64,000 nt of DNA from assembly GCF_900105415.1 (NCBI RefSeq), contig NZ_FNSM01000002.1, positions 186,001 through 250,000 of the forward strand. The letters run 5' to 3'. Shown here piece after piece: positions 2,577 to 12,853 of the stretch (position 1 is its first letter; each line of letters begins with the position of its first letter). Both the position numbers and the translations under genes were made by a program. The DNA comes from Streptomyces sp. TLI_105. GTDB taxonomy: Bacteria; Actinomycetota; Actinomycetes; Streptomycetales; Streptomycetaceae. Below the pieces are notes generated by a model that worked only from the letters and a program-made list of their open reading frames with translations, did no database searches and was not told the DNA's origin.

Positions 2577-4476
2577 CTGCTCCCCGCGCACGCGGGGATG
2601 GTCCCGTTGCTCGCGCGGCCGAGTCGCCCCGCAGCAGCTGCTCCCCGCGCACGCGGGGATGGTCCCGTGGGCTGATCTGCAGGTCGGCGGACCACCGGCT
2701 GCTCCCCGCGCACGCGGGGATGGTCCCCAGCCTCCGGCATATGCGAGAAGAGTCTGGGCCTGCTCCCCGCGCACGCGGGGATGGTCCCCTCATCACCAGC
2801 CGAGGTGAACATGCCACGCACTGCTCCCCGCGCACGCGGGGATGGTCCCCGGTGCACGGCCGCCGCGATCCGCTCGCCCGCCTGCTCCCCGCGCACGCGG
2901 GGATGGTCCCGACCCGGGCGGCGACCAGTGCGACGCGTGGTGCTGCTCCCCGCGCACGCGGGGATGGTCCCGCGGGCAGGTTCATCGACCGCAGCACGCC
3001 GTTCTGCTCCCCGCGCACGCGGGGATGGTCCCAAGGGCGACGGGGTCGCCCGGTGGGTAAAGGACTGCTCCCCGCGCACGCGGGGATGGTCCCGCCACGG
3101 TGTTCCCTGCGTCCGTCGACACCCGCTGCTCCCCGCGCACGCGGGGATGGTCCCTCCTGGGGCGTTCTGAGGGGTCCTCTTATGCACTGCTCCCCGCGCA
3201 CGCGGGGATGGTCCCGCAACAGGCCCCGCCAAGGCGGGGCCCGAAGGCTGCTCCCCGCGCACGCGGGGATGGTCCCATGAGCGCTTCGCCGACGGACGTC
3301 CCGTCACCCTGCTCCCCGCGCACGCGGGGATGGTCCCGACTCCGTGGCTCGACGAAGGAAGAGCTCGAACTGCTCCCCGCGCACGCGGGGATGATCCCGC
3401 GATCAGGCGGAGGAGTCCGCCGAAGGTGGCCTGCTCCCCGCGCACGCGGGGATGGTCCCGTGCCGCTCAAGCGCGAAGCCAAGCAGCGGATCTGCTCCCC
3501 GCGCACGCGGGGATGGTCCCATGGCGTCGCTCTGCTCCCCGCGCACGCGGGGATGGTCCCGTTGGCCAGGGGATTCGTACTGACGCCGTACACTGATCCC
3601 CGCGCACGCGGGGATGGTCCCCGCTCCCGCGCCCTGCGCGCCCGTATCGCTGGTTGCTCCCCGCGCACGCGGGGATGGTCCCATCGAGCTCGGCGCGGAG
3701 GCCGCGAACCTGACCTGCTCCCCGCGCACGCAGGGATGGTCCCGCCCGAACGATGTCCTCCGATGCATGGATGGACTGCTCCCCGCGCACGCGGGGATGG
3801 TCCCTTCCGACGCCACTGGATTCCCGCGATTCAGGCCTGCTCCCCGCGCACGCGGGAATGGTCCCGAGATCCTTCAGGGTCTTCAAGGAGAAGAGGTCTG
3901 CTCCCCGCGCACACGGGGATGGTCCCAACGATCAGAAGTACTCCGACCAGCTTCCCGGCTGCTCCCCGCGCACGCGGGGATGGTCCCCAGTACGACCTGC
4001 GCCCGGCCTGTGCGTCGCTCTGCTCCCCCCGTACGCGGGGATGGTCCTGCCCTCGGGTGCCGGCACCCCGGCGGAAGGTCCTGCTCCCCGCGCACGCGGG
4101 GATGGTCCCTGGGTCTACGCGACGCTCCCGACCGGGCAGACCTGCTCCCCGCGCACGCGGGGATGGTCCCGCCTCCCGGACCAGCGGCTCGGCCTCGTCC
4201 CACCTGCTCCCCGCGCACGCGGGGATGGTCCCAAGTACGGGGGCTACACGTTCCAGGACGACCTCTGCTCCCCGCGCACGCGGGGATGGTCCCGGCCTTC
4301 CCGAGGTACTGCCGCCCCCGCATGTCTGCTCCCCGCGCACGCGGGGATGGCCCCAGGGCTACATCATGGCCATGGACCACGTCGGGCTGCTCCCCGCGCA
4401 TGCGGGGATGGTCCCTAGGTCTGCTCGATGGCCGGCTGGCTGTCCGACTGCTCCCCTGCTACCAAGAGCAGGTAGC
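2577..4476 (+). CRISPR. type I-E-like CRISPR array 1, 31 repeats plus a degenerate one
   Basis: 29-nt repeats starting CTGCTCCCCGCGCACGCGGG and ending GATGGTCCC recur every 61 bp from 2577 to 4387, with 32-nt spacers. Exceptions: the spacer at 3521-3531 is only 11 nt, and one at 4171-4203 is 33 nt. Variant repeats lie at 3370, 3593, 3654, 3715, 3837, 3898, 4020, 4326 and 4387. A truncated repeat begins at 4448 and runs into a small hairpin (4458-4476). Variants concentrate in the right half, which supports the right side as the old, trailer end. The spacer at 3988-4019 is also present in array 2. No cas genes are in the window, so function depends on genes elsewhere. Confidence 0.97.
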
Positions 4477-5146: not shown

Positions 5147-5336
5147 GCTTGAGGCACTGATCATCCAGGGTGCTGAGTAGCAGTCAGCTGCCAATCGGCA
5201 GACCCTTCACCATCTCGACTCACTCTCGATCGCACCTGTGGCCCTGCTCCCACGTCGTGTACTTCATCGACGCGAGATGCCATACCGAGACCACAATGAC
5301 GCGAGATGAGTAGTGATTCTCCTCAACGGTGCTTCC

Positions 5337-5792
5337 CTGCTCCCCGCGCATGCGGGGATGGTCCCCGCCGATCGGAGAGCCACCAGAAGTGACCGTCCTG
5401 CTCCCCGCGCACGCGGGGATGGTCCCCCGACCCTTCAGGTGGTCGGGATCGTGCCCAGCTGCTCCCCGCGCACGCAGGGATGGTCCCCTCACCCGGCCGC
5501 GGGTCACCGCCATCCGCGTCTGCTCCCCGCGCACACGGGGATAATCCCCCGATCTACGGGCAGGGCCTGACGCTGGCGTCTTGCTCCCCGCGCACGCGGG
5601 GATGGTCCCCAGTACGACCTGCGCCCGGCCTGTGCGTCGCTCTGCTCCCCCCGTACGCGGGGATGGTCCCGTGACGGCCCGCAGGATGCCGAGGGAGAAC
5701 TCCTGCTCCCCGCGCACGCGGGGATGGTCCCCGGCGGGCCGTCATCTCCGTGTGGACGCTGACCTGCTCCCCGCGCACGCGGGGATGGTCCC
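5337..5792 (+). CRISPR. type I-E-like CRISPR array 2, 8 repeats
   Basis: Eight 29-nt repeats of the same family and orientation as array 1 start at 5337, 5398, 5459, 5520, 5581, 5642, 5703 and 5764, with seven 32-nt spacers. Four repeats are variants. The spacer at 5610-5641 and the unusual following repeat (5642, with CCCCCCGTACGCGGGG) are identical or nearly so to 3988-4048 in array 1. Two preceding variants (GCAGGG at 5459, ACACGG at 5520) occur in the same order in array 1 (3715, 3898). The 190 bp to the left may act as a second leader but shows no clear similarity to the first. No repeat follows 5792. Confidence 0.97.
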
Positions 5793-6426
5793 AGCAAGTT
5801 CGGCCGTCAGGGTGGCCGAGGATCGCACCTCGCGGGCGAGCTCCGCGTTGCGCGAGGATGTAGATGGCGGTCGTCCCCCGGGGCGACCGAGGATCACAAC
5901 TGGATCGTGAGCGACTTGCCCCACGTGTCCGTCAGGAATGGCGGTCACTCTTACGCGTACGTGTTGACCTCGTGCCGCCACAGGCACGGTCGCTCCGCCC
6001 CGATCGCCCCTTCTGGCAACCGGCCGTCGATCCGAGAGTCGCCCTTGACCTCATTCAGCCGCTTTTGGATCTGCGGCTTCGACGGCACCGGGACCTTCAC
6101 CCGTTGCTGTACCTTCGCTTCCAGCACTTCGTGATCGACGAGTTCAGCCCGCCACCGCTAGGGCGCAGACACTTTGGCAGTGAGAGCGTAGTTGAAATCC
6201 CACCTTGCCTTGCCTGCGGGCAGAGAGTCGAGCAGTGTGCGTGTCGGCGGCCGGAACGAGTAGCAGTGGTGGCGCGTCGCGGCGACTACGTTTCCCGCAT
6301 TCTGGTGCGACTCTCCGTGACGCTCATTAGGCTAAACGGCTGAAGGTGATCTACCTCTCCCCTTCCGCCCGCAGGACACTCCCCCGCAGGTGGGAGAGGT
6401 GGGCTGTGCTGGCGAAGGGGCTGGCG
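5793..6426. other. gene-poor stretch with a degraded minus-strand frame
   Basis: No intact gene is supported. On the minus strand, codons from about 6160 down to 5953 read plausibly as protein (LVDHEVLEAKVQQRVKV ... GRLPEGAIGAERPCLWRHEV) with an in-frame TAG just upstream and TAA just after, and no good start. This looks like a fragment of a former gene between the array and the CoiA-like gene. I do not recognise the family. Confidence 0.35.
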
Positions 6427-8304
6427 ATGGGCGTTGACAACCGGCAGATCCAGACTGCCGTTCTGGCGGATCCCGAGTCCGATGATCCGGTGGTCTGCCC
6501 GACGGATGCTGACGAGCTCGACGAGTTCCGCGAGGAGTTTGCCGACACGACGTTCTGGTGCGGGATCCTGCTGGGCGGGTGCGGCGGCCAGCTCACTACG
6601 AGGCGGGGCAACGTCCGCGTCAGCCACTTCGCCCACTTCCCCGACCCCGACGGGCTGTTGCCCGAATGCGGCCGTCGTTCCCGGGGCGTCGCGAGCGCGG
6701 ACCACCTGTACGTGCGGGCGGCCACCCAGACGTGGCTGCGCCGCCAGGGCCACACCCCGCGCTACCGCTACATCGACCGCGACGACGCCCCAGTCGGCTC
6801 TCTTGTGGAGATCGAGCTGGACGGGCGCACGCTGCTGCTGCACATGAACCCCGCGACGCCGCCCGACTGGGACGCGGCGCAGGCCGGCGACATCATCCTC
6901 GGCCCCGGCGTCCAGGTCGACCACCACACCCTGGTGCGCCGGGGCTACGTCAACCGGATCAAGTTCGTCAGCGAGGGCAACCAGCGGGTCATGATGCTCG
7001 GCACCGAGCTCCCGCACGTAGGCACCGACTGGGACTTCAAGCTGGCGGACTGCACCGTCGACGGACGCGGCCGGCTCATCACCCCCGTCGTCACCCGCGT
7101 CGAAGCCGCGCGTGCCGCCGCGGAGCGGACGCCGGTGCCGCGGCCGCGCAGCGAGAAGACCGAAGGGCCGGTGCAGATCGGCGCTCTGACCCGGCTCATC
7201 AACACCGCCGTACAGAAGAAGGAGACTGCCGCCGTCCGCCAGCTGCGGGACATCGCCCAGCTCCAGGTGCCTCGCTGCGAAGGGCAGGCGCTCGATCACC
7301 TGCAACGCGCGATCGACCACGCCAACGACTTGCTCGACGAGCAGGACCGTGTCCGCTGGCGGCTCTTCACCGGACTCGATGAGGCGGTCCGGCACGGTCA
7401 CGTCTACAAGGTCACGACGCTGACCCCGCAGGTCAGAAGGTTCATCCAGGGCGACACGGTGACCACGCCGCAGGAGGCGGGCATCCTCCAGGCGGCCGAC
7501 ACACTCCTTCGAGGAGCACGTCAGCAGGCTGCCCAGAAACGGCGGGCTGCGGACGAACGCCGTGCGGCAGCGGTCCGGGAGCGGGAAGAACGCCGTACGG
7601 CAGAGACCGAAGAGCGCCGGAGCCGTCCCGCGGCACAGGCTCAGGAACAGCAAGCTCAGCCCGTGACGCAGGCCCAGGAGCGCAAAGCACGCAACAGGGC
7701 GCGGGGGCGGGTCCAGAGCATCAGCGGCCGTCTACGCCGTGAAAAGCTGTCCGCCCAGCAGCAGAAGCATCTCGTCGAGGAGCTGATTCTCGCAGCGAAG
7801 GAGGCCGGGGACCACCTGTCCGAGGCTGAGCAGCACAAGGTGAACGAGTGGGTGGAAAAGATCGCCGCCCCCGTAGAAGAACCGGGCACGGCCAATAAGA
7901 CCTCTCCGGCCCCGCAACCACAGCCGGACGCGATCACGGAGCCCGCCAAGCTGCCAGACCGTCTCGTTCCCGCTGCGGCGGCTGTCCGCGGAGCCTTGAA
8001 GAAGGCGGCACGGGAACGGACCGCGACCAGCTGGAACCGGCTGGAACACCAGCTCGGCTCCGCGCTCCCCTCTCTCACCAACAACGAACGCGTCCAGGTG
8101 CTCGTCCAGGTCGACCGGTCCACGGCCGGCGACGAGCCGCTCCTGTCGTCCCTGCTGGCCGCAGGCGACCCGCACTTCGCCTACCAGTACTACCGGCACG
8201 TCCTCGCCGCACTGGGCCTGGACGCCCCGGACGACGACGAAGACCTGCGGGACGTCGTCGAAGCCGACGCCGAACAGGTCTTCACCGACTGGCGCTTCCG
8301 CTGA
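6427..8304 (+). CDS. CoiA-like (competence CoiA family) protein
   Basis: 625 residues from ATG 6427, chosen because GAAGGGG precedes it; the frame opens earlier at 6346. Residues 45-110 follow the CoiA-like pattern: cysteine-containing strand FWCGILLGGCGGQL, an R-G-N-VRVSHFAHFP segment with HFAH at 67-70, then LPECGRRS and a helix ADHLYVRAATQTWL. In CoiA proteins this region forms a nuclease-like domain with a histidine-rich zinc site. The middle is followed by a basic, Arg/Glu/Gln-rich coiled coil (about 370-450) and a helical C-terminus. Related proteins are common on Streptomyces plasmids; the role in DNA uptake or processing is inferred. It converges on, and its 3' end overlaps, the DciA-like frame on the other strand. 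Confidence 0.65.
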   Translation: MGVDNRQIQTAVLADPESDDPVVCPTDADELDEFREEFADTTFWCGILLGGCGGQLTTRRGNVRVSHFAHFPDPDGLLPECGRRSRGVASADHLYVRAATQTWLRRQGHTPRYRYIDRDDAPVGSLVEIELDGRTLLLHMNPATPPDWDAAQAGDIILGPGVQVDHHTLVRRGYVNRIKFVSEGNQRVMMLGTELPHVGTDWDFKLADCTVDGRGRLITPVVTRVEAARAAAERTPVPRPRSEKTEGPVQIGALTRLINTAVQKKETAAVRQLRDIAQLQVPRCEGQALDHLQRAIDHANDLLDEQDRVRWRLFTGLDEAVRHGHVYKVTTLTPQVRRFIQGDTVTTPQEAGILQAADTLLRGARQQAAQKRRAADERRAAAVREREERRTAETEERRSRPAAQAQEQQAQPVTQAQERKARNRARGRVQSISGRLRREKLSAQQQKHLVEELILAAKEAGDHLSEAEQHKVNEWVEKIAAPVEEPGTANKTSPAPQPQPDAITEPAKLPDRLVPAAAAVRGALKKAARERTATSWNRLEHQLGSALPSLTNNERVQVLVQVDRSTAGDEPLLSSLLAAGDPHFAYQYYRHVLAALGLDAPDDDEDLRDVVEADAEQVFTDWRFR

Positions 8305-9165
8305 AACCGGCCGGGCGGAGCGCACGAGCTCACCCGGCTTGGCGCGGAGCGGGCGCGGCGGGCGGCACACCGGTCGTCCGGCGCGGGCTCGACGGATCGC
8401 TGCCGCACGAACGGCTGCGGCAGCCTGTCGTTGCTGGACCCGGACCTCTTCGAGTGACGCCACTACCTTGTCCTCCTGGTCCTGCTCGGCGTCGGGGAAA
8501 ACAGTGGCGGCGAGCTCGCGGCGGACTTGTTCCTGCCGTTCGACGGCGGCGGCCAGGGCCTGGTCGTCCTGGCGGGGCGGGGCGACCGCGCGGTGGGCGG
8601 CGAGAGCACGGCGGTAGCCGGCCGACGCGCTCTCCCGCGTCTTCACCGGTTCGGCCGGAACGACCGGCCGCGGGGCCGGATCGTCGGCGGCCGCCGGGAA
8701 CACCGTCGCGGCGGCGGTGCGGGCGGTGGGCGCCAGGACGTTGACCGTCCGGACGTTCGCCTCGCGCACCGTGCTGTTGGTGGCCGCGATCAGCCGCGGC
8801 GTGATCCAGCGGGCCTTGGTGCCGTACGCGGGGGCATCGGGGACGACCTCCAGGCGGCCGGTGTCCGCATCGAACTTCACCGCCTGGACGTGCCCGGTGA
8901 GCTCGGGCGCGGCCGCGATGAGGATGGTGTCCCACTGGGCCAGGACGCTGCCGCCAGCGGCCGGGGCAACCAGGCCGCGCTCGGTCATCATCAGGCTGAT
9001 CGCCATGCCCAGGCCAAGCGGGTCGCGGCCGTCGCGCGGCACGATCCGGGTCCGACGGCGGGGCTTGTCCTGGCGGGCGGTCCCGCGCTTCTTCGCCGCC
9101 TCACGAGCGGCGAGGAGCGCCTGGCGGGCGAGGTCAATCCCGGAGGGCTGCGGGGTGCTGGTCAT
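7732..9165 (-). CDS. DciA-like (DUF721) replication protein
   Basis: ATG 9163-9165 overlaps the stop of the upstream replication protein (ATGA), so the two are translationally coupled. The N-terminus GIDLARQALLAAREAAKKRG and the domain LAQWDTILIAAAPELTGHV ... DTGRLEVVPDAPAYGTKARW ... REANVRTVNVLAP match DUF721/DciA, the bacterial replicative-helicase loader family. After about residue 230 the sequence becomes Ala/Arg/Gln-rich. The frame has no stop until 7732, so the C-terminal 190 codons would be antisense to the CoiA-like gene; either the tail is real and convergently overlapping or a frameshift near 8300 has removed the true stop. Role proposed: loading helicase on the plasmid origin. Confidence 0.7.
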   Translation of the reverse strand: MTSTPQPSGIDLARQALLAAREAAKKRGTARQDKPRRRTRIVPRDGRDPLGLGMAISLMMTERGLVAPAAGGSVLAQWDTILIAAAPELTGHVQAVKFDADTGRLEVVPDAPAYGTKARWITPRLIAATNSTVREANVRTVNVLAPTARTAAATVFPAAADDPAPRPVVPAEPVKTRESASAGYRRALAAHRAVAPPRQDDQALAAAVERQEQVRRELAATVFPDAEQDQEDKVVASLEEVRVQQRQAAAAVRAAAIRRARAGRPVCRPPRPLRAKPGELVRSARPVSAEAPVGEDLFGVGFDDVPQVFVVVRGVQAQCGEDVPVVLVGEVRVACGQQGRQERLVAGRGPVDLDEHLDAFVVGERGERGAELVFQPVPAGRGPFPCRLLQGSADSRRSGNETVWQLGGLRDRVRLWLRGRRGLIGRARFFYGGGDLFHPLVHLVLLSLGQVVPGLLRCENQLLDEMLLLLGGQLFTA

Positions 9166-11036
9166 CAGGCCACCACCCCGGCGATCCCCTGGACCACGTG
9201 CCGTCGGCAGAACCGGCGCAACGCCAGGGCCTCGCGCGTGCACGGCGCATCTGCTTCCCGACCCTGGCAGGTCCTCGGGCCGGACTCCTCGACCGACCCG
9301 ACCGTCGCGGTCCGCACGGGCGCCTCAGTGTGGAGCTGAGTGGGCGCCGGAACGACCGTGACGGCCCGGGGCGCGGAGACGAGGCCGGGGTGGAGCTCCT
9401 CGCGGCAGGGTTTGCATAGGCCGTCGTCCAGGGGCCGGCCGGTCATGAAGATCCGGCAGCCGCACTCACCGCACGTCCCGCGCTCCGGGCCCTCCACAGC
9501 CCGCTGGGCCGGAACGTTGGTGGGCCGGGCGGCCGCGGTCTCGAGGTCGCAGTCGGCGCAGCGGCCGGACGGGTCCGGGCGGGTGCCGTGCTGGAGGCAC
9601 AGGCCGGCGGCGGCACGACGGGTGCGCTCACGGGCGGCGGCCTTGTCCTGGACGATCTCGGCGCACACCTCGCAGGCCGCGCCTGTGCGCCAGATGGTGC
9701 CGGACTCGCAGTCGGCGTAGCCGCAGCCCCAGCGGGGCAGGGCCACCCCGAGCAGCCACCGGCCCGGGTCACGGATCTCGTCCGACATCGTCCCCGCCAG
9801 CCGGGTAGTCAGCCGGTGCTGGAGACGCTCGGCACAGGTGCTGGCGTCGATCTGCCGGCCGACCTCACGGGCGATCTGCCGGGCGACGAACGCGCTGGTC
9901 ACCTGGGCCAAGAGGTGGTGCACCGGCTCCAGCACGGCGTAGATCTCCGCGCTCATCGCCAGCTGCGGACCGGTGTACGACGATCCCCGGCCGCCCCCGG
10001 CCCCGCTGCTGCGCTTTTCGACTACCGGCTTCTTCGACGAGGGCTCGTTCTTGCCATCCGCGCGAAGCGCGAGAGCAGCGTCGCCCCGGCCAGCGGCAGC
10101 TTTGTCACCGGCCCGGTTTTCCACAGGCGAAGCGCCCTTACCTACCTGTACCTCGCCTACGGCGGATGAGAAGAACGCTCGCCCGTCCTCAGGTGAGTCA
10201 GTCTTAGGTGATTCCTCATTCGCGAGGGATCCCTCACCAACCGGAGAACCCGATCCCTCACCAACCGGGGAACTCGCCGACGCCTCGAGACCGCTGTCCA
10301 CGACCACCCCGGCGGCCGCCTGGACGACCTCGGCCGGGCGGGCCTCGGGAGCCAGGTCGTGCGCGACGTACCGGTTGCGCCCTCGCGCTCCCGCCCGCCG
10401 CTGCACCGTCATCCAGCGCGCCGCCTCCACCTCGTCCACGACCGCCGACGCCGCCGTCACCGACAACGCCCGGCCAGCCTTCTTGCCCGAGTGGTGCAGC
10501 AGATAAGAGGCGATCTCCGCCTCCGTCAGCGCGATCCCCCGCGCCTGCGCGTACGCCACCAGCGCGAACACCCGTAGCTGCCGAGGCGTCAGGTCCTCCG
10601 CGGCCGCCACCGGCAGCCACACGTACGCCTCCGTCCGCAACATCGGCCGCACCGTGCGCACCGCCGACTGGCCCCGGCCACCCGGCAGCGTCCGCCTCTT
10701 GGAAAGCAGCTCCACCACGCCGTCCGGCCCCGGCCGGCGCAGTTGCCTCATCCCCCGCTCCACCGAAGCCTCCGACAGTCCGAGATACCTGGCGATCGTC
10801 TCCGTACGCGCCTCACACCCCTCCGGCCGCGCCGCGAGCGCCTTCACCTTCACGTACACCGACAGCGCCACGTCCTGATAGGACGACGTCCACACCAGAC
10901 GCATCGGCACCCGCACCCGCTGACGCCGCCCCCGGACCTCACCGGCCGGAACGGACGTGGCGCCGACCGGGTTGTCGGCGACGTCGTTGACGGACTCGTC
11001 CACCGAAGCGGCGCCGGCCGCCGCCACGACGCTCAT
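9165..11036 (-). CDS. winged-helix/zinc-finger replication-initiator-type protein
   Basis: 623 residues. The N-terminal third contains two helix-turn-helix-like units: RTETIARYLGLSEASVERGMRQL near residue 80-105 and LTEAEIASYLLHHSGKKAGRALSV near 170-200. The middle (230-340) is low complexity with repeats of SPVGEGS. The C-terminal part has three Cys clusters (CGYADCESG...CEVC, CLQHG...CADC, CGECGC...CKPC) that look like zinc ribbons, plus a last CTREALALRRFCRRH motif. It overlaps the DciA-like gene by ATGA. That pairing and the single-gene upstream intergenic region argue for a plasmid replication initiator, but a transcriptional regulator cannot be excluded. Confidence 0.6.
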   Translation of the reverse strand: MSVVAAAGAASVDESVNDVADNPVGATSVPAGEVRGRRQRVRVPMRLVWTSSYQDVALSVYVKVKALAARPEGCEARTETIARYLGLSEASVERGMRQLRRPGPDGVVELLSKRRTLPGGRGQSAVRTVRPMLRTEAYVWLPVAAAEDLTPRQLRVFALVAYAQARGIALTEAEIASYLLHHSGKKAGRALSVTAASAVVDEVEAARWMTVQRRAGARGRNRYVAHDLAPEARPAEVVQAAAGVVVDSGLEASASSPVGEGSGSPVGEGSLANEESPKTDSPEDGRAFFSSAVGEVQVGKGASPVENRAGDKAAAGRGDAALALRADGKNEPSSKKPVVEKRSSGAGGGRGSSYTGPQLAMSAEIYAVLEPVHHLLAQVTSAFVARQIAREVGRQIDASTCAERLQHRLTTRLAGTMSDEIRDPGRWLLGVALPRWGCGYADCESGTIWRTGAACEVCAEIVQDKAAARERTRRAAAGLCLQHGTRPDPSGRCADCDLETAAARPTNVPAQRAVEGPERGTCGECGCRIFMTGRPLDDGLCKPCREELHPGLVSAPRAVTVVPAPTQLHTEAPVRTATVGSVEESGPRTCQGREADAPCTREALALRRFCRRHVVQGIAGVVA

Positions 11037-11545
11037 CGAGCACTCCCAACGGCCGGAAGGCGGAACGTGGCGAGCGAACGGACGCTTGGGGCAGGCAGAG
11101 CGGTGCAGATATTCATGGCCGTGGTGTACCGGCCAAAGCGGACACCCCTGGCCAGGGTGAGACGGAGAACAGGCGCAACAGCGCGAGCGATGATCACCCG
11201 GGCACGATGACCCGACCGGCCTGTGGACAGAGACCGACGAACTCGCATCTGGTCCACCGCTCCCGCACGGCGGGCGAGAACTTTCGCGCCATCCCGCTGG
11301 GCGGGAAGCGAGCGCCTGTGGACGCTGCCGAGGAACGGCCGGGCAGACCCGGAGGAAACGATCAGCTCGTGGTTTCCTGCAGGAAGAGTCACTTCCTGTT
11401 CAAAAGTAGCGAACCGGAAGATAAGGAGCGCTTGTTCCGTCACATGAAAAGCGCCAAAGGTGCGAAACGTTCTAAAACAGGCAGGGCTCGACTTTTCAGG
11501 GGACACCAGATCGGGCACTATGAGGACGTCCGCCTCTCTGTATCT
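11037..11545. other. intergenic region upstream of rep, possible origin
   Basis: About 500 bp with no supported gene, lying just upstream of the replication-type gene. It holds TGTGGACAG at 11222-11230, one mismatch from the actinobacterial DnaA box TGTGGACAA, and a weaker TGTGGACGC at 11318-11326. The palindrome TTCCTGCAGGAA lies near 11377. From about 11390 the composition is notably less GC-rich. These fit an origin, but I see no clear iteron array. Confidence 0.35.
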
Positions 11546-11941
11546 CCCGGCGTATCGCCGGGTGGATGTTTCAGCAGGTAGGTGGATGCGCCCCCTCCGC
11601 AAGGAGCGGGCACCGGACGAGGAACCAGAGACGGGTCCCCCTTCTCTTGCGGTGAATCGGACGGGTGGCACGGATAGCCCTCGGGCTGGTCGTGCCGTGT
11701 TCCAAAGCCCTTGCCGGGGCTGTCGGAACGGCGGAGCCACTTCGGTGGTGTTGTGCAGAAGCCCTCTTGCCGGAGGGCCGCTGCGGCTACTGCTTGGTCC
11801 TTGCGGACCAGGTACTGCATTGGATTGCTCAACCCAGCTCGATGAGCTGGAGCCCAGAACCGGGGCCAACCGGGGACCGGGCGGCCGACCTGATGGTCGG
11901 CACGAAGGGCCGCGCGAGGTTGAAGTGGATTGCCGTCCACT
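11546..11941 (+). ncRNA. candidate large structured RNA with ten hairpins
   Basis: A dense run of near-perfect hairpins: 11546-11562 (7 bp), 11595-11606 (GCAA loop), 11667-11696 (two-tier), 11699-11729, 11737-11748 (CCAC-TTCG-GTGG), 11755-11784, 11795-11810, 11834-11850, 11884-11901 and 11924-11941. The loops TTCG closed by C-G and GCAA are stable RNA tetraloops on the plus strand. Three hairpins share the hexaloop TTGCCG (11711, 11767, 11930). A plus-strand frame is open across the region but reads as low-complexity, unprotein-like sequence. The density is far beyond any other intergenic region here. It may be a large ornate RNA of the GOLLD/ROOL kind or a new class; strand and ends are inferred. 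A telomere-like DNA fold is the alternative. Confidence 0.55.
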
Positions 11942-12029
11942 CATCTGGCGCGCGGCCGGTGGCGGCTACGTCACCCCGACCCCCTCGAAACCGAAGGCGG
12001 CGTCGGCGTACCCGAAACCGGGAGCCAGG

Positions 12030-12296
12030 TCAGTCCTCACGCGGGCCTCCCTGAGCGACGGTCGGATGCTCTTCGGCCAGGCCGCGGAGAAACTCCGCGT
12101 ACTTCAGGCGGTTACTGCGGTGGGGCTGCGTATGGCCGGCTTCCCATCGGACGATGGCGAGGCGCTTGACGCCGATGGCCTCGGCGACTTCCGCCTGGGT
12201 CAAATTCGCGGCGATGCGCAGCTGTTGGCGGATGCGCGGCGGAGGCAGCGTGTCAGCATCCACTAGGGCATCGTCTCGACGCAGCGGATCCGACAT
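12030..12296 (-). CDS. XRE-family helix-turn-helix protein
   Basis: 88 residues. The start ATG at 12294-12296 has GGAGG five bases upstream, better than the ATG four codons earlier. The Cro/C1-type HTH spans IRQQLRIAANLTQAEVAEAIGVKRLAIVRWEAGHTQPH, with the recognition helix GVKRLAIVRWEAG, followed by a short tail KYAEFLRGLAEEHP. It should bind DNA as a dimer. It is separated from the hairpin-rich region by under 100 bp and runs toward it, so it may control nearby genes; no toxin partner is adjacent. Confidence 0.8.
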   Translation of the reverse strand: MSDPLRRDDALVDADTLPPPRIRQQLRIAANLTQAEVAEAIGVKRLAIVRWEAGHTQPHRSNRLKYAEFLRGLAEEHPTVAQGGPRED

Positions 12297-12379
12297 CGCA
12301 GCCTCCATCCCATTCAGCGTTTCCCGAAAAGATACACTGTTTGATCTCTGTGGGGCAGCCTTGCGCGGGTGAGTGTGGA

Positions 12380-12853
12380 TTACCTGCTGCGGCCGTCACC
12401 CAGGTGGCGGTTCGGCATTTGAGCGGCATCTGCGAGCTCGGACAGTTCAACAACCGTCACGCCAGCAGCAACCAAGAGCTCGACTCCGACACAGTCGGCA
12501 ACGAACAAGGATGGTTCGCGCCAGGCGATGACGACGCGCGGGATCCCGGCCTCGAGGATCCGCTGCGCGCACGGAGTACGGTCCGCGCTCCGCTGAGAGC
12601 ACGGCTCCAGGGACGAGTAGATCGTCGCCGTGGCCAGCCGCGGGTCGCCCGCCGGGAGCTTCGCGAGGACGGCTTCCTCCGCGTGCTCACGCGGATCGCC
12701 CTCGCGGGAGTAGCCAGCCGCAAGTTCGGTGCCGTCCTCGGCGACGATGACCGCGCCCACCGAGTAGGCTCCGGCGGCCGGAGGGCACAGCGAGGCGAGG
12801 CCGATCGCGCGTCGCATCCAGTGGAGGTCCTGGTCCCGGTCGGGCGCGTGCAT
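12380..12853 (-). CDS. RibD N-terminal-type cytidine deaminase-like protein
   Basis: 157 residues with the zinc deaminase motifs HAEEAVL (H57, catalytic E59) and EPCSQRSADRTPC (C85, C95), matching the riboflavin deaminase half of RibD. The usual RibD deaminates a pyrimidine intermediate of riboflavin synthesis. It starts inside the stop of the reductase-like gene upstream (ATGA at 12850-12853), so the two halves of a RibD enzyme are encoded as separate coupled proteins. No other riboflavin gene is nearby, so a specialised substrate (for example in a modified pyrimidine or flavin-like pathway) is possible. Confidence 0.8.
   Translation of the reverse strand: MHAPDRDQDLHWMRRAIGLASLCPPAAGAYSVGAVIVAEDGTELAAGYSREGDPREHAEEAVLAKLPAGDPRLATATIYSSLEPCSQRSADRTPCAQRILEAGIPRVVIAWREPSLFVADCVGVELLVAAGVTVVELSELADAAQMPNRHLGDGRSR

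What the first reader, a model, noticed from the sequence alone, without database searches (positions are those of the whole stretch)
11546..11941. Ten hairpins in 400 bp: candidate large structured RNA
Stems of 4-10 bp with stable tetraloops (GCAA, C-TTCG-G) follow one another with little gap, and three hexaloops are the same TTGCCG. No convincing protein frame covers it. Known large ornate bacterial RNAs (OLE, GOLLD, ROOL) sit on mobile elements in just such gene-free blocks. It lies between the plasmid replication genes and an XRE regulator.
Basis: partly seen in the sequence, partly recalled or inferred. Interest (0 to 1): 0.8.

Follow-up and report, generated by a model that had tools for sequence, protein, structure and literature searches.

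The report
Plasmid RNA with matching hairpin loops
Beside the probable copying start point of many Streptomyces plasmids lies a strongly folded stretch that looks like an undescribed non-coding RNA; several of its hairpins carry the same loop letters, and these letters differ from plasmid to plasmid like an identity tag, probably used to control how the plasmid is copied.

Summary
The finding holds and grows. The window is part of a 289-kb plasmid-sized contig of a Streptomyces genome. Comparison shows a structured RNA of about 450 nt on the + strand (about 11528-11976). A covariance model found it in 31 of 392 sampled Streptomyces genomes and in no sampled genome of 9 other genera of the order or 136 others of the class. 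No Rfam family matches. Support: 13 of 41 helix pairs show changes on both sides with pairing kept; in helix P4 all 18 non-Watson-Crick cells are G.U on the + strand, none A.C; a GNRA-capped hairpin; a promoter-like site (CTGACA-N18 or TTTTCA-N17, then CACTAT) in 81 of 93 copies and nowhere in 345 kb of flanks; no frame is open in more than 10 of 86 copies. It sits between Rep-like/DciA-like genes and an XRE gene, beside a DnaA-box-like motif. The surprise: several hairpins of one element share a loop word, the word differs between plasmids, and it follows neither Rep nor XRE (2 of 18 Rep pairs at least 90% identical share it). Best reading: a trans-acting RNA that gives the plasmid its identity in replication control. 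Transcription and function are inferred, not shown.

The parts
11222..11229 (.). DnaA-box-like motif TGTGGACA between rep and the RNA promoter (likely origin region, inferred)
   Evidence: TGTCCACA/TGTGGACA at 1.27 per kb in the 570-nt stretch on the rep side of the RNA, in 56 of 84 loci, against 0.012 per kb in flanks; position
11493..11521 (+). promoter-like site of the RNA: TTTTCA (11493-11498), 17 nt, CACTAT (11516-11521)
   Evidence: 81 of 93 copies, none in 345,060 nt of flanks on either strand, none on the reverse strand of the same stretches; coordinates; not seen by the standard sigma-70 scan
11528..11976 (+). structured non-coding RNA; 5' end placed about 7 nt after the -10 box, 3' end after helix P6 (both inferred)
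   Evidence: fold z -8.7; covariation; G.U asymmetry; no conserved frame
11595..11606 (+). hairpin CTCC-GCAA-GGAG with GNRA loop
   Evidence: 58 of 62 hits of a loose search have a GNRA loop; stems CTCC/GGAG 36 and CTTC/GAAG 22; 33 of 95 copies gave no hit
11706..11721 (+). hairpin with loop TTGCCG, copy 1
11737..11748 (+). hairpin CCAC-TTCG-GTGG
11761..11778 (+). hairpin with loop TTGCCG, copy 2
11834..11850 (+). helix P1 CCAGCTC-GAT-GAGCTGG
   Evidence: G-C 54 / A-U 35 at one pair and C-G 70 / U-A 15 at another, of 93 copies
11852..11882 (+). helix P2 (outer GCCCAG/CTGGGC type, inner CCGG/CCGG type)
   Evidence: 96.8% and 94.4% of cells paired in 37 copies, 6 of 10 pairs with changes on both sides
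11884..11901 (+). helix P3
   Evidence: 89.0% of cells paired in 37 copies; absent or changed in some copies
11908..11957 (+). helix P4 (GGCCGCGCG with CGCGCGGCC), enclosing P5
   Evidence: 99.4% of cells paired in 37 copies, none of its pairs changed on both sides; G.U 18 against A.C 0 in 93 copies
11925..11940 (+). helix P5 with loop TTGCCG, copy 3
   Evidence: U-A 19, C-G 10 at one pair of 37 copies; loop class
11958..11975 (+). helix P6 GGTGGC..GTCACC
   Evidence: A-U 23 / G-C 14 and C-G 23 / G-C 10 exchanges in 37 copies; in 93 copies G.U 76, A.C 1
9165..11036 (-). Rep-like protein, 623 aa, divergent from the RNA; role as initiator inferred
   Evidence: no Pfam or NCBIfam match of its own; family present in 55 of 57 loci with at least 2 kb upstream, by a model built from 15 of these proteins; weak HTH matches below cut-off in 4 of 6 full-length relatives scanned
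7732..9243 (-). frame holding a DUF721/DciA-like protein (helicase loader); true start not fixed
   Evidence: NF002871 E 2.6e-9, 37 bits, below that model's cut-off of 246; DciA family present in 45 of 47 loci with at least 4 kb upstream, by a model built from 13 annotated copies
12030..12308 (-). XRE HTH protein, 92 aa, convergent with the RNA
   Evidence: HTH_3 39.4 bits; resembles the N-terminus of Tap, 58.3 bits, cut-off 600; found beside 71 of 93 copies

Best explanation
The + strand of about 11528-11976 is a free-standing non-coding RNA, started from its own promoter beside the origin of a Streptomyces plasmid of the Rep-DciA type. It folds into a chain of hairpins plus a conserved 3' domain. 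Several hairpins present the same loop word, and this word is the plasmid's identity tag: the RNA acts in trans on its own plasmid's replication (copy number, incompatibility), and the loops make first contact with the target. Because the tag changes freely while Rep and XRE stay the same, the likeliest reader is nucleic acid from the same DNA, that is, a countertranscript relation to the leader of the XRE-rep-dciA direction, on the opposite strand. Shown: structure, strand, promoter-like site, position, repeated plasmid-specific loops. Inferred: transcription, trans action, replication control and the countertranscript step.
For: Structure and strand. Promoter-like site. Place beside rep-like and dciA-like genes and a DnaA-box-like motif. 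Repeated loops: the P5 loop word recurs upstream in the same element 151 times against mean 40, maximum 69 in 2000 label shuffles over 86 elements. It survives thinning of relatives: at under 0.80 identity (18.2 representatives on average) 30.3 against 9.0, above all 300 shuffles in 20 of 20 runs; at under 0.75, in 16 of 20. Outside P5, 103 of 142 such words lie in loops with stems of 5 or more, against 806 of 3232 for random 5-mers and 20.7 of 37.9 for shuffled labels. Letters flanking the copies match at 18-46%, so mainly the loop is shared. Loop word does not follow Rep: similarity 0.174 within and 0.173 between classes; 2 of 18 Rep pairs at 90% or more share it. Nor XRE once relatedness of the RNA is held: at 85-90% backbone identity 2 of 13 pairs with XRE at 90% or more share the class, against 22 of 40 with XRE under 75%. 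Loop words are not enriched outside the element (z at most 1.9). Of six same-host plasmid pairs in the set, five could be scored and four carry different loops.
Against: No transcript seen. The standard sigma-70 scan found no promoter and no terminator here. The reverse complement of the loop word is not enriched nearby (z at most 2.1), so no separate anti-loop site was found. The tree-based covariation test was weak: 4 pairs at E <= 0.05, only 2 of them pairable. The loop rule is not perfect: in the TGCAG class (9 elements) the word itself is hardly enriched (0.67 against 0.47) and upstream loops read mostly TGCCA; TACCA behaves alike. The countertranscript idea does not by itself require all loops to be alike; the - strand folds less well on average (mean z -4.1 against -5.6, but better in 4 of 18 elements) and carries A.C where + has G.U. 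No sigma-A-like promoter was found on the - strand between RNA and rep, and read-through from XRE is untested. In pFRL2 the published 2.2-kb HindIII origin clone could not be placed on this locus. Without holding relatedness, near-identical XRE pairs do share the class more often (6 of 11 at 97% or more). The same-host count is too small to mean much.
Confidence: 0.5

Rival explanations
1. A decoy or scaffold RNA: the equal loops bind several copies of one protein encoded elsewhere on the plasmid (as CsrB titrates CsrA), and that protein differs between plasmids.
For: Equal loops on unlike stems are what a loop-binding protein would select. A reader outside the flanking genes would explain independence from Rep and XRE.
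Against: No such gene was looked for beyond Rep and XRE, and those two do not follow the loop class; XRE's HTH stretch is nearly constant across classes.
Confidence: 0.22
2. A primer or origin RNA: the transcript forms an RNA-DNA hybrid or recruits Rep/DciA at the origin, and the loops serve its own folding or control, as in RNA-based origins.
For: Neighbouring origin-like motif and replication-type genes; a region expressing a non-coding RNA is required for replication of some mycobacterial prophages (PMC7157519, abstract and passages).
Against: The RNA is directed away from the DnaA-box-like stretch; the RNA-based prophages lack repA, these plasmids have a Rep-like gene.
Confidence: 0.12
3. 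A large structural RNA with a task unrelated to replication (OLE/ROOL/GOLLD-like), merely carried in the backbone.
For: Size, tetraloops, plasmid setting, restricted distribution.
Against: Tied to the rep-dciA locus in 55 of 57 and 45 of 47 loci; no Rfam match.
Confidence: 0.1
4. Folded single-stranded DNA (hairpins read during replication or transfer, as at Streptomyces telomeres) rather than RNA.
For: XRE resembles the Tap N-terminus; Tap binds telomere palindromes (as told in PMC6863802, passages); strand asymmetry fits any single strand.
Against: Promoter-like site pointing into the element, G.U-only variation in P4 and GNRA/TTCG loops favour RNA; element lies inside the contig, not at an end.
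Confidence: 0.05
5. Chance hairpins in GC-rich non-coding or coding DNA.
For: Hairpin count alone is within range.
Against: Energy, covariation in 37 copies and conservation across 93 copies.
Confidence: 0.01

Closest known systems
Antisense-RNA plasmid control (CopA/CopT of R1, RNA I/RNA II of ColE1; recalled; the review by Brantl 2014 was seen only in a reference list)
   Same: Structured RNA beside a plasmid origin, hairpin loops that differ between plasmids, strand opposite to the rep direction
   Different: About 450 nt with several equal loops in one molecule; antisense pairing with a rep leader not shown; accompanied by a DciA-like gene
RNA-based replication of cluster A mycobacterial prophages (PMC7157519; abstract and passages)
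   Same: Non-coding RNA at an extrachromosomal origin in Actinobacteria
   Different: The RNA-based prophages lack repA; here Rep-like and DciA-like genes are present; the sequences were not compared one by one (no match of this element in the phage collection)
OLE, GOLLD, ROOL large RNAs (Rfam)
   Same: Large folded RNA on mobile elements
   Different: No Rfam match even at E up to 5 in 11000-12400; loop words concerted and plasmid-specific
CsrB/CsrC-type sponge RNAs (recalled)
   Same: Many hairpins with the same loop motif
   Different: Loop word not fixed, changes between plasmids; the loop classes seen are not the GGA type recalled for CsrA
Streptomyces telomere palindromes bound by Tap (PMC6863802, passages)
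   Same: Runs of hairpins; neighbour XRE resembles the Tap N-terminus
   Different: Internal, with a promoter-like site, G.U asymmetry
Non-coding replication sequences (ncs) of Streptomyces plasmids, e.g. pWTY27 (PMC3583192, passages) and Zhang et al. 2009 (seen only in reference lists)
   Same: Non-coding stretch beside rep genes required for replication
   Different: The pWTY27 ncs is an iteron of short direct repeats bound by RepA, not described as a folded RNA; the 2009 paper's text was not available

Membership tests
OLE / GOLLD / ROOL and any other Rfam family | match to the family's covariance model | tested here: not met
   no match at gathering scores in the window nor at E <= 5 in 11000-12400
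Structured non-coding RNA (general) | compensatory base changes in homologues | tested here: met
   13 of 41 pairs, 69 cells against 22.0 shuffled; tree-based test weak, 2 pairable pairs at E <= 0.05
Structured non-coding RNA (general) | transcript exists | not testable with these tools
   only a conserved promoter-like site
Antisense plasmid copy-number control | RNA lies on the strand opposite to rep, upstream of rep | tested here: met
   + strand RNA; rep-like gene on the - strand, XRE on the - strand
Antisense plasmid copy-number control | rep transcript carries the complementary leader | tested here: inconclusive
   no sigma-A-like - strand promoter in the 600 nt between RNA and rep in 76 loci; transcripts not available
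RNA-based origin (ColE1, cluster A prophages) | no initiator protein needed | tested here: inconclusive
   Rep-like gene in 55 of 57 loci, dciA-like in 45 of 47; need not tested
Streptomyces telomere | at the end of the replicon | tested here: not met
   C2:197,400-197,960 of a 289,318-nt contig
Iteron (ncs of pWTY27 type) | direct repeats in DNA | tested here: inconclusive
   no direct repeat family of 12 nt or more in 11000-12500, but the pWTY27 repeats are 7-8 bp and would escape that search; flanks of the loop words match at 18-46%
CsrB-type sponge | repeated loops that bind one protein | tested here: inconclusive
   repeated loops met; binding not testable

The most novel reading that the evidence does not exclude
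A new RNA class in which one molecule displays several copies of a plasmid-specific loop word kept alike by selection, so that the RNA itself is an exchangeable identity code for replication or incompatibility, rewritten as a set and independently of the initiator protein.
Probability: 0.4. Interest if true: 0.9.

Novelty: new variant of a known kind. Interest (0 to 1): 0.78.

Why it matters
It would add a sizeable RNA family to the replication loci of Streptomyces plasmids, where I know of little about control of copy number and compatibility (recall). The concerted, plasmid-specific loops are an unusual pattern of RNA evolution and make a direct test possible: change the loop word as a set and see whether the compatibility group changes. 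It could also give a marker for typing these plasmids.

Tried and rejected
Rejected: protein coding; chance hairpins; Rfam families; tRNA/tmRNA; phage origin (no match to 11400-11985 in 50,697 phage records at E 1e-3; no exact match of the core pattern in viral contigs); XRE or Rep as reader of the loop word, judged by whole-protein similarity and near-identical pairs (a few residues that decide could escape this); a complementary loop site within about 3 kb.

Tried without result: the first search for the GNRA hairpin was badly written and was redone. HindIII mapping of pFRL2 to place the published 2.2-kb origin clone found no such fragment, so it neither supports nor refutes. Several rows of alignment A1 were misplaced and it was not used. 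Rep-like protein against solved structures: no match. A paper on SCP1 partition held none of six terms searched.

Rows dropped: of 115 extracted copies, 16 near-duplicates; L061, L097, L103 (Proteobacteria, Archangium, Kiritimatiellota titles: core pattern only, taken as chance by eye) and L077 (cut off); L030 left out beforehand as a probable coding coincidence; L021 and L029 had no match to the 3' anchor; L011 and L032 failed the core search. That leaves 93. For the covariance model 37 of 48 chosen copies were used, misplaced ones and those lacking P3 left out. The promoter pattern and loop words were chosen after reading 14 folds, so the promoter count is not a blind test. In one search the protein models were built from loci that were then counted.

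Literature: ten searches of the held library listed no paper that, by title or abstract start, describes this RNA; Zhang et al. 2009 (FEMS Microbiol Lett 290:209) was seen only in reference lists and may describe parts of such loci.

The membership row on iterons was changed to inconclusive.

Full report
What is there. The window is bases 186,001-250,000 of a 289-kb contig of a Streptomyces genome (genus from the relatives), and the element occurs once in that genome. Between a Rep-like gene (9165-11036, - strand) and an XRE gene (12030-12308, - strand) lies about 1 kb without a convincing gene. Counting hairpins alone would not have convinced me: 7 against 4.2 in shuffles, and 16 of 161 tiles reach 7. 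The energy does: z = -8.7 for the + strand of 11528-11977 against a mean of -0.9 (sd 1.7) in 94 tile-strands; the one that folds better lies in a CRISPR array. Over 18 homologous elements z averages -5.6 on the + and -4.1 on the - strand; in 4 of the 18 the - strand is the lower.

Homologues. A 993-nt query finds similar DNA in 79 plasmid records, all Streptomyces; a 586-nt query finds none in phage records. A pattern from the conserved 3' core finds 71 stretches in 84,980 species genomes: 67 titled Streptomyces, one 'Actinobacteria bacterium OK074' with a full 3' domain, and three from distant phyla that match the core only, which I took as chance. A covariance model of helices P2-P6 (37 copies) finds 31 of 392 sampled Streptomyces genomes, 34 of 391 sampled genomes of the order, all in the one genus out of 10, and 3 of 394 of the class, 1 genus of 137; two of the hits are weak (E 3e-6 and 0.004). 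Among the copies, two lie within 100 kb of the end of a chromosome-sized contig (8.1 of 8.2 Mb and 7.35 of 7.39 Mb); the other contigs are 3.9 to 313 kb. Known plasmids with a copy: pSV2, pFRL1, pFRL2, pSCL2 and the 158-kb plasmid of S. venezuelae NRRL B-65442, named pSVJI1 in PMC8788739.

It is a folded single strand, and the + strand. On alignment A2 (37 copies) 96.5% of 1476 cells pair; 13 of 41 pairs have changes on both sides, 69 such cells against 22.0 (sd 4.5) in 500 shuffles; sliding the partners gives at most 5 such cells. RNAalifold on its own predicts 32 pairs, 9 with changes on both sides. P4 itself has no pair changed on both sides; its case rests on G.U. In 93 copies, departures in P4 are 18 G.U and 0 A.C, in P6 76 and 1, over all helices 169 and 51, of which 22 A.C are at one terminal pair of P5. 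A double-stranded DNA feature would show no such difference. A stricter test of mine with a tree-based null gave only 4 pairs at E <= 0.05, 2 of them pairable; among the 70 top-ranked pairs 13 are paired in over 85% of copies, against 279 of 3228 variable background pairs. A loose search found a hairpin with a GNRA loop in 58 of 62 hits, with CTCC/GGAG (36) and CTTC/GAAG (22) stems (33 of 95 copies gave no hit).

It is probably transcribed. Upstream of 81 of 93 copies stands CTGACA (63) or TTTTCA (18), then 18 (63) or 17 (18) bases, then CACTAT (79) or CATTAT (2), on the + strand; the same pattern occurs nowhere in 345,060 nt of flanks on either strand. The pattern was written down after reading 14 folds, so this is not a blind test, but the fixed spacing and the absence elsewhere are telling. 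The standard scan did not see a promoter or a terminator here. From this site to the end of P6 the RNA would be 338-660 nt, median 422, 450 in the window (77 copies). No frame is kept open: 6-10 of 86 per frame.

Setting. A Rep-like protein is encoded upstream on the other strand in 55 of 57 loci with at least 2 kb of upstream sequence, a DciA-like protein in 45 of 47 with at least 4 kb (the models were built from some of these loci). The Rep-like proteins carry at best weak HTH matches, so their role is inferred from place and company. An XRE protein lies downstream of 71 of 93 copies; in 42 of the 71 its frame ends in the P4-P6 region. The motif TGTCCACA/TGTGGACA, the core of the Streptomyces DnaA box TTGTCCACA given in PMC3583192 (passages), is about a hundredfold enriched in the 570 nt on the rep side of the RNA: 56 of 84 loci. 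I therefore place the origin there; this is inference. The published 2.2-kb HindIII origin clone of pFRL2 (PMC3212956, passages) could not be located on this locus.

The loops. This is general. In each element I took the loop of P5 and sorted it by a word, nearly always of five letters (TGTCA, TGCCG, TGCGA, GGTTA and others). The word recurs in the upstream part of the same element 151 times in 86 elements, against 40 (maximum 69) when words are dealt out anew 2000 times. Not every class behaves: for TGCAG (9 elements) the word is hardly enriched and the upstream loops read mostly TGCCA, one letter away. With relatives thinned to below 80% identity (18 left on average) it is 30.3 against 9.0, above every shuffle in 20 of 20 runs; below 75% in 16 of 20. 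Outside P5, 103 of 142 recurrences sit in loops of stems of at least 5 pairs, against a quarter of random 5-mers and 20.7 of 37.9 with shuffled labels. The letters around the word match at 18-46% between copies of one element (357 pairs), so whole hairpins were not simply copied. The enrichment is confined to the element (z 13.3; elsewhere at most 1.9), and the reverse complement is not clearly enriched anywhere within 3 kb (z at most 2.1). Pairs of elements alike at 95% or more always share the word (12 of 12), at 85-90% half do (155 pairs), below 75% about 4%.

Who reads the loops. Not Rep as a whole: its similarity is the same within and between loop classes, and of 18 pairs with Rep at least 90% identical only 2 share the class. 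Nor, it seems, XRE: its HTH stretch hardly varies, the overall class signal is slight (0.671 against 0.653), and although near-identical XRE pairs share the class more often (6 of 11 at 97% or more), this goes with relatedness of the RNA: at 85-90% backbone identity 2 of 13 pairs with XRE at 90% or more share it, against 22 of 40 with XRE under 75%. That leaves a reader elsewhere or a reader made of the same DNA. The RNA lies opposite the XRE-to-rep direction, so a transcript running from XRE into rep would carry its exact complement, and loop changes would stay matched without any second mutation, as in antisense control of plasmids (established knowledge, recalled). I commit to replication control through the loops as the likeliest role, with the countertranscript as the likeliest means, and give half my belief to the first. 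That the loops are alike within one RNA is not explained by this alone; a loop-binding protein would explain it better, and is my main rival.

Novelty. No Rfam family matches and ten searches of the held library listed no description; papers outside that library, above all Zhang et al. 2009, could not be read. As an RNA at a plasmid origin it is a variant of a known kind; the concerted, plasmid-specific loops I have not met before (recall, not a search).

Noticed in passing
window 5331-5795 and 2700-3687: CRISPR-like repeats (CTGCTCCCCGCGCACGCGGGGATGGTCCC type) in two stretches, 8 and 17 copies in the parts looked at, mostly 61-nt spacing; their outer limits and cas genes were not looked for.
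   Followed up: partly
window 12030-12308 (-): The small XRE protein scores 58 bits against the N-terminus of the telomere protein Tap (model cut-off 600), more than against any other NCBIfam model; it may descend from a Tap-type HTH.
   Followed up: partly
window 11222-11229 and homologous loci: DnaA-box core TGTCCACA/TGTGGACA is about 100-fold enriched on the rep side of the RNA.
   Followed up: yes
just upstream of the RNA promoter-like site: Conserved words on the - strand (CCGTTTC in 46, CCGGTTC in 41 of 76 loci) directly beside the -35 box; possible operator of the RNA.
   Followed up: no
NC_023282.1 (pFRL2) 92036-92740, in L036: pFRL2 has a second gene annotated as replication initiation protein near its right end, which may be the origin cloned earlier.
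   Followed up: no
Rep-like genes of 84 loci: Of 14 listed pairs with Rep at least 90% identical and different loop class, 13 have RNA 3' domains only 61-81% identical, which suggests cassette exchange or very fast change of the RNA.
   Followed up: partly
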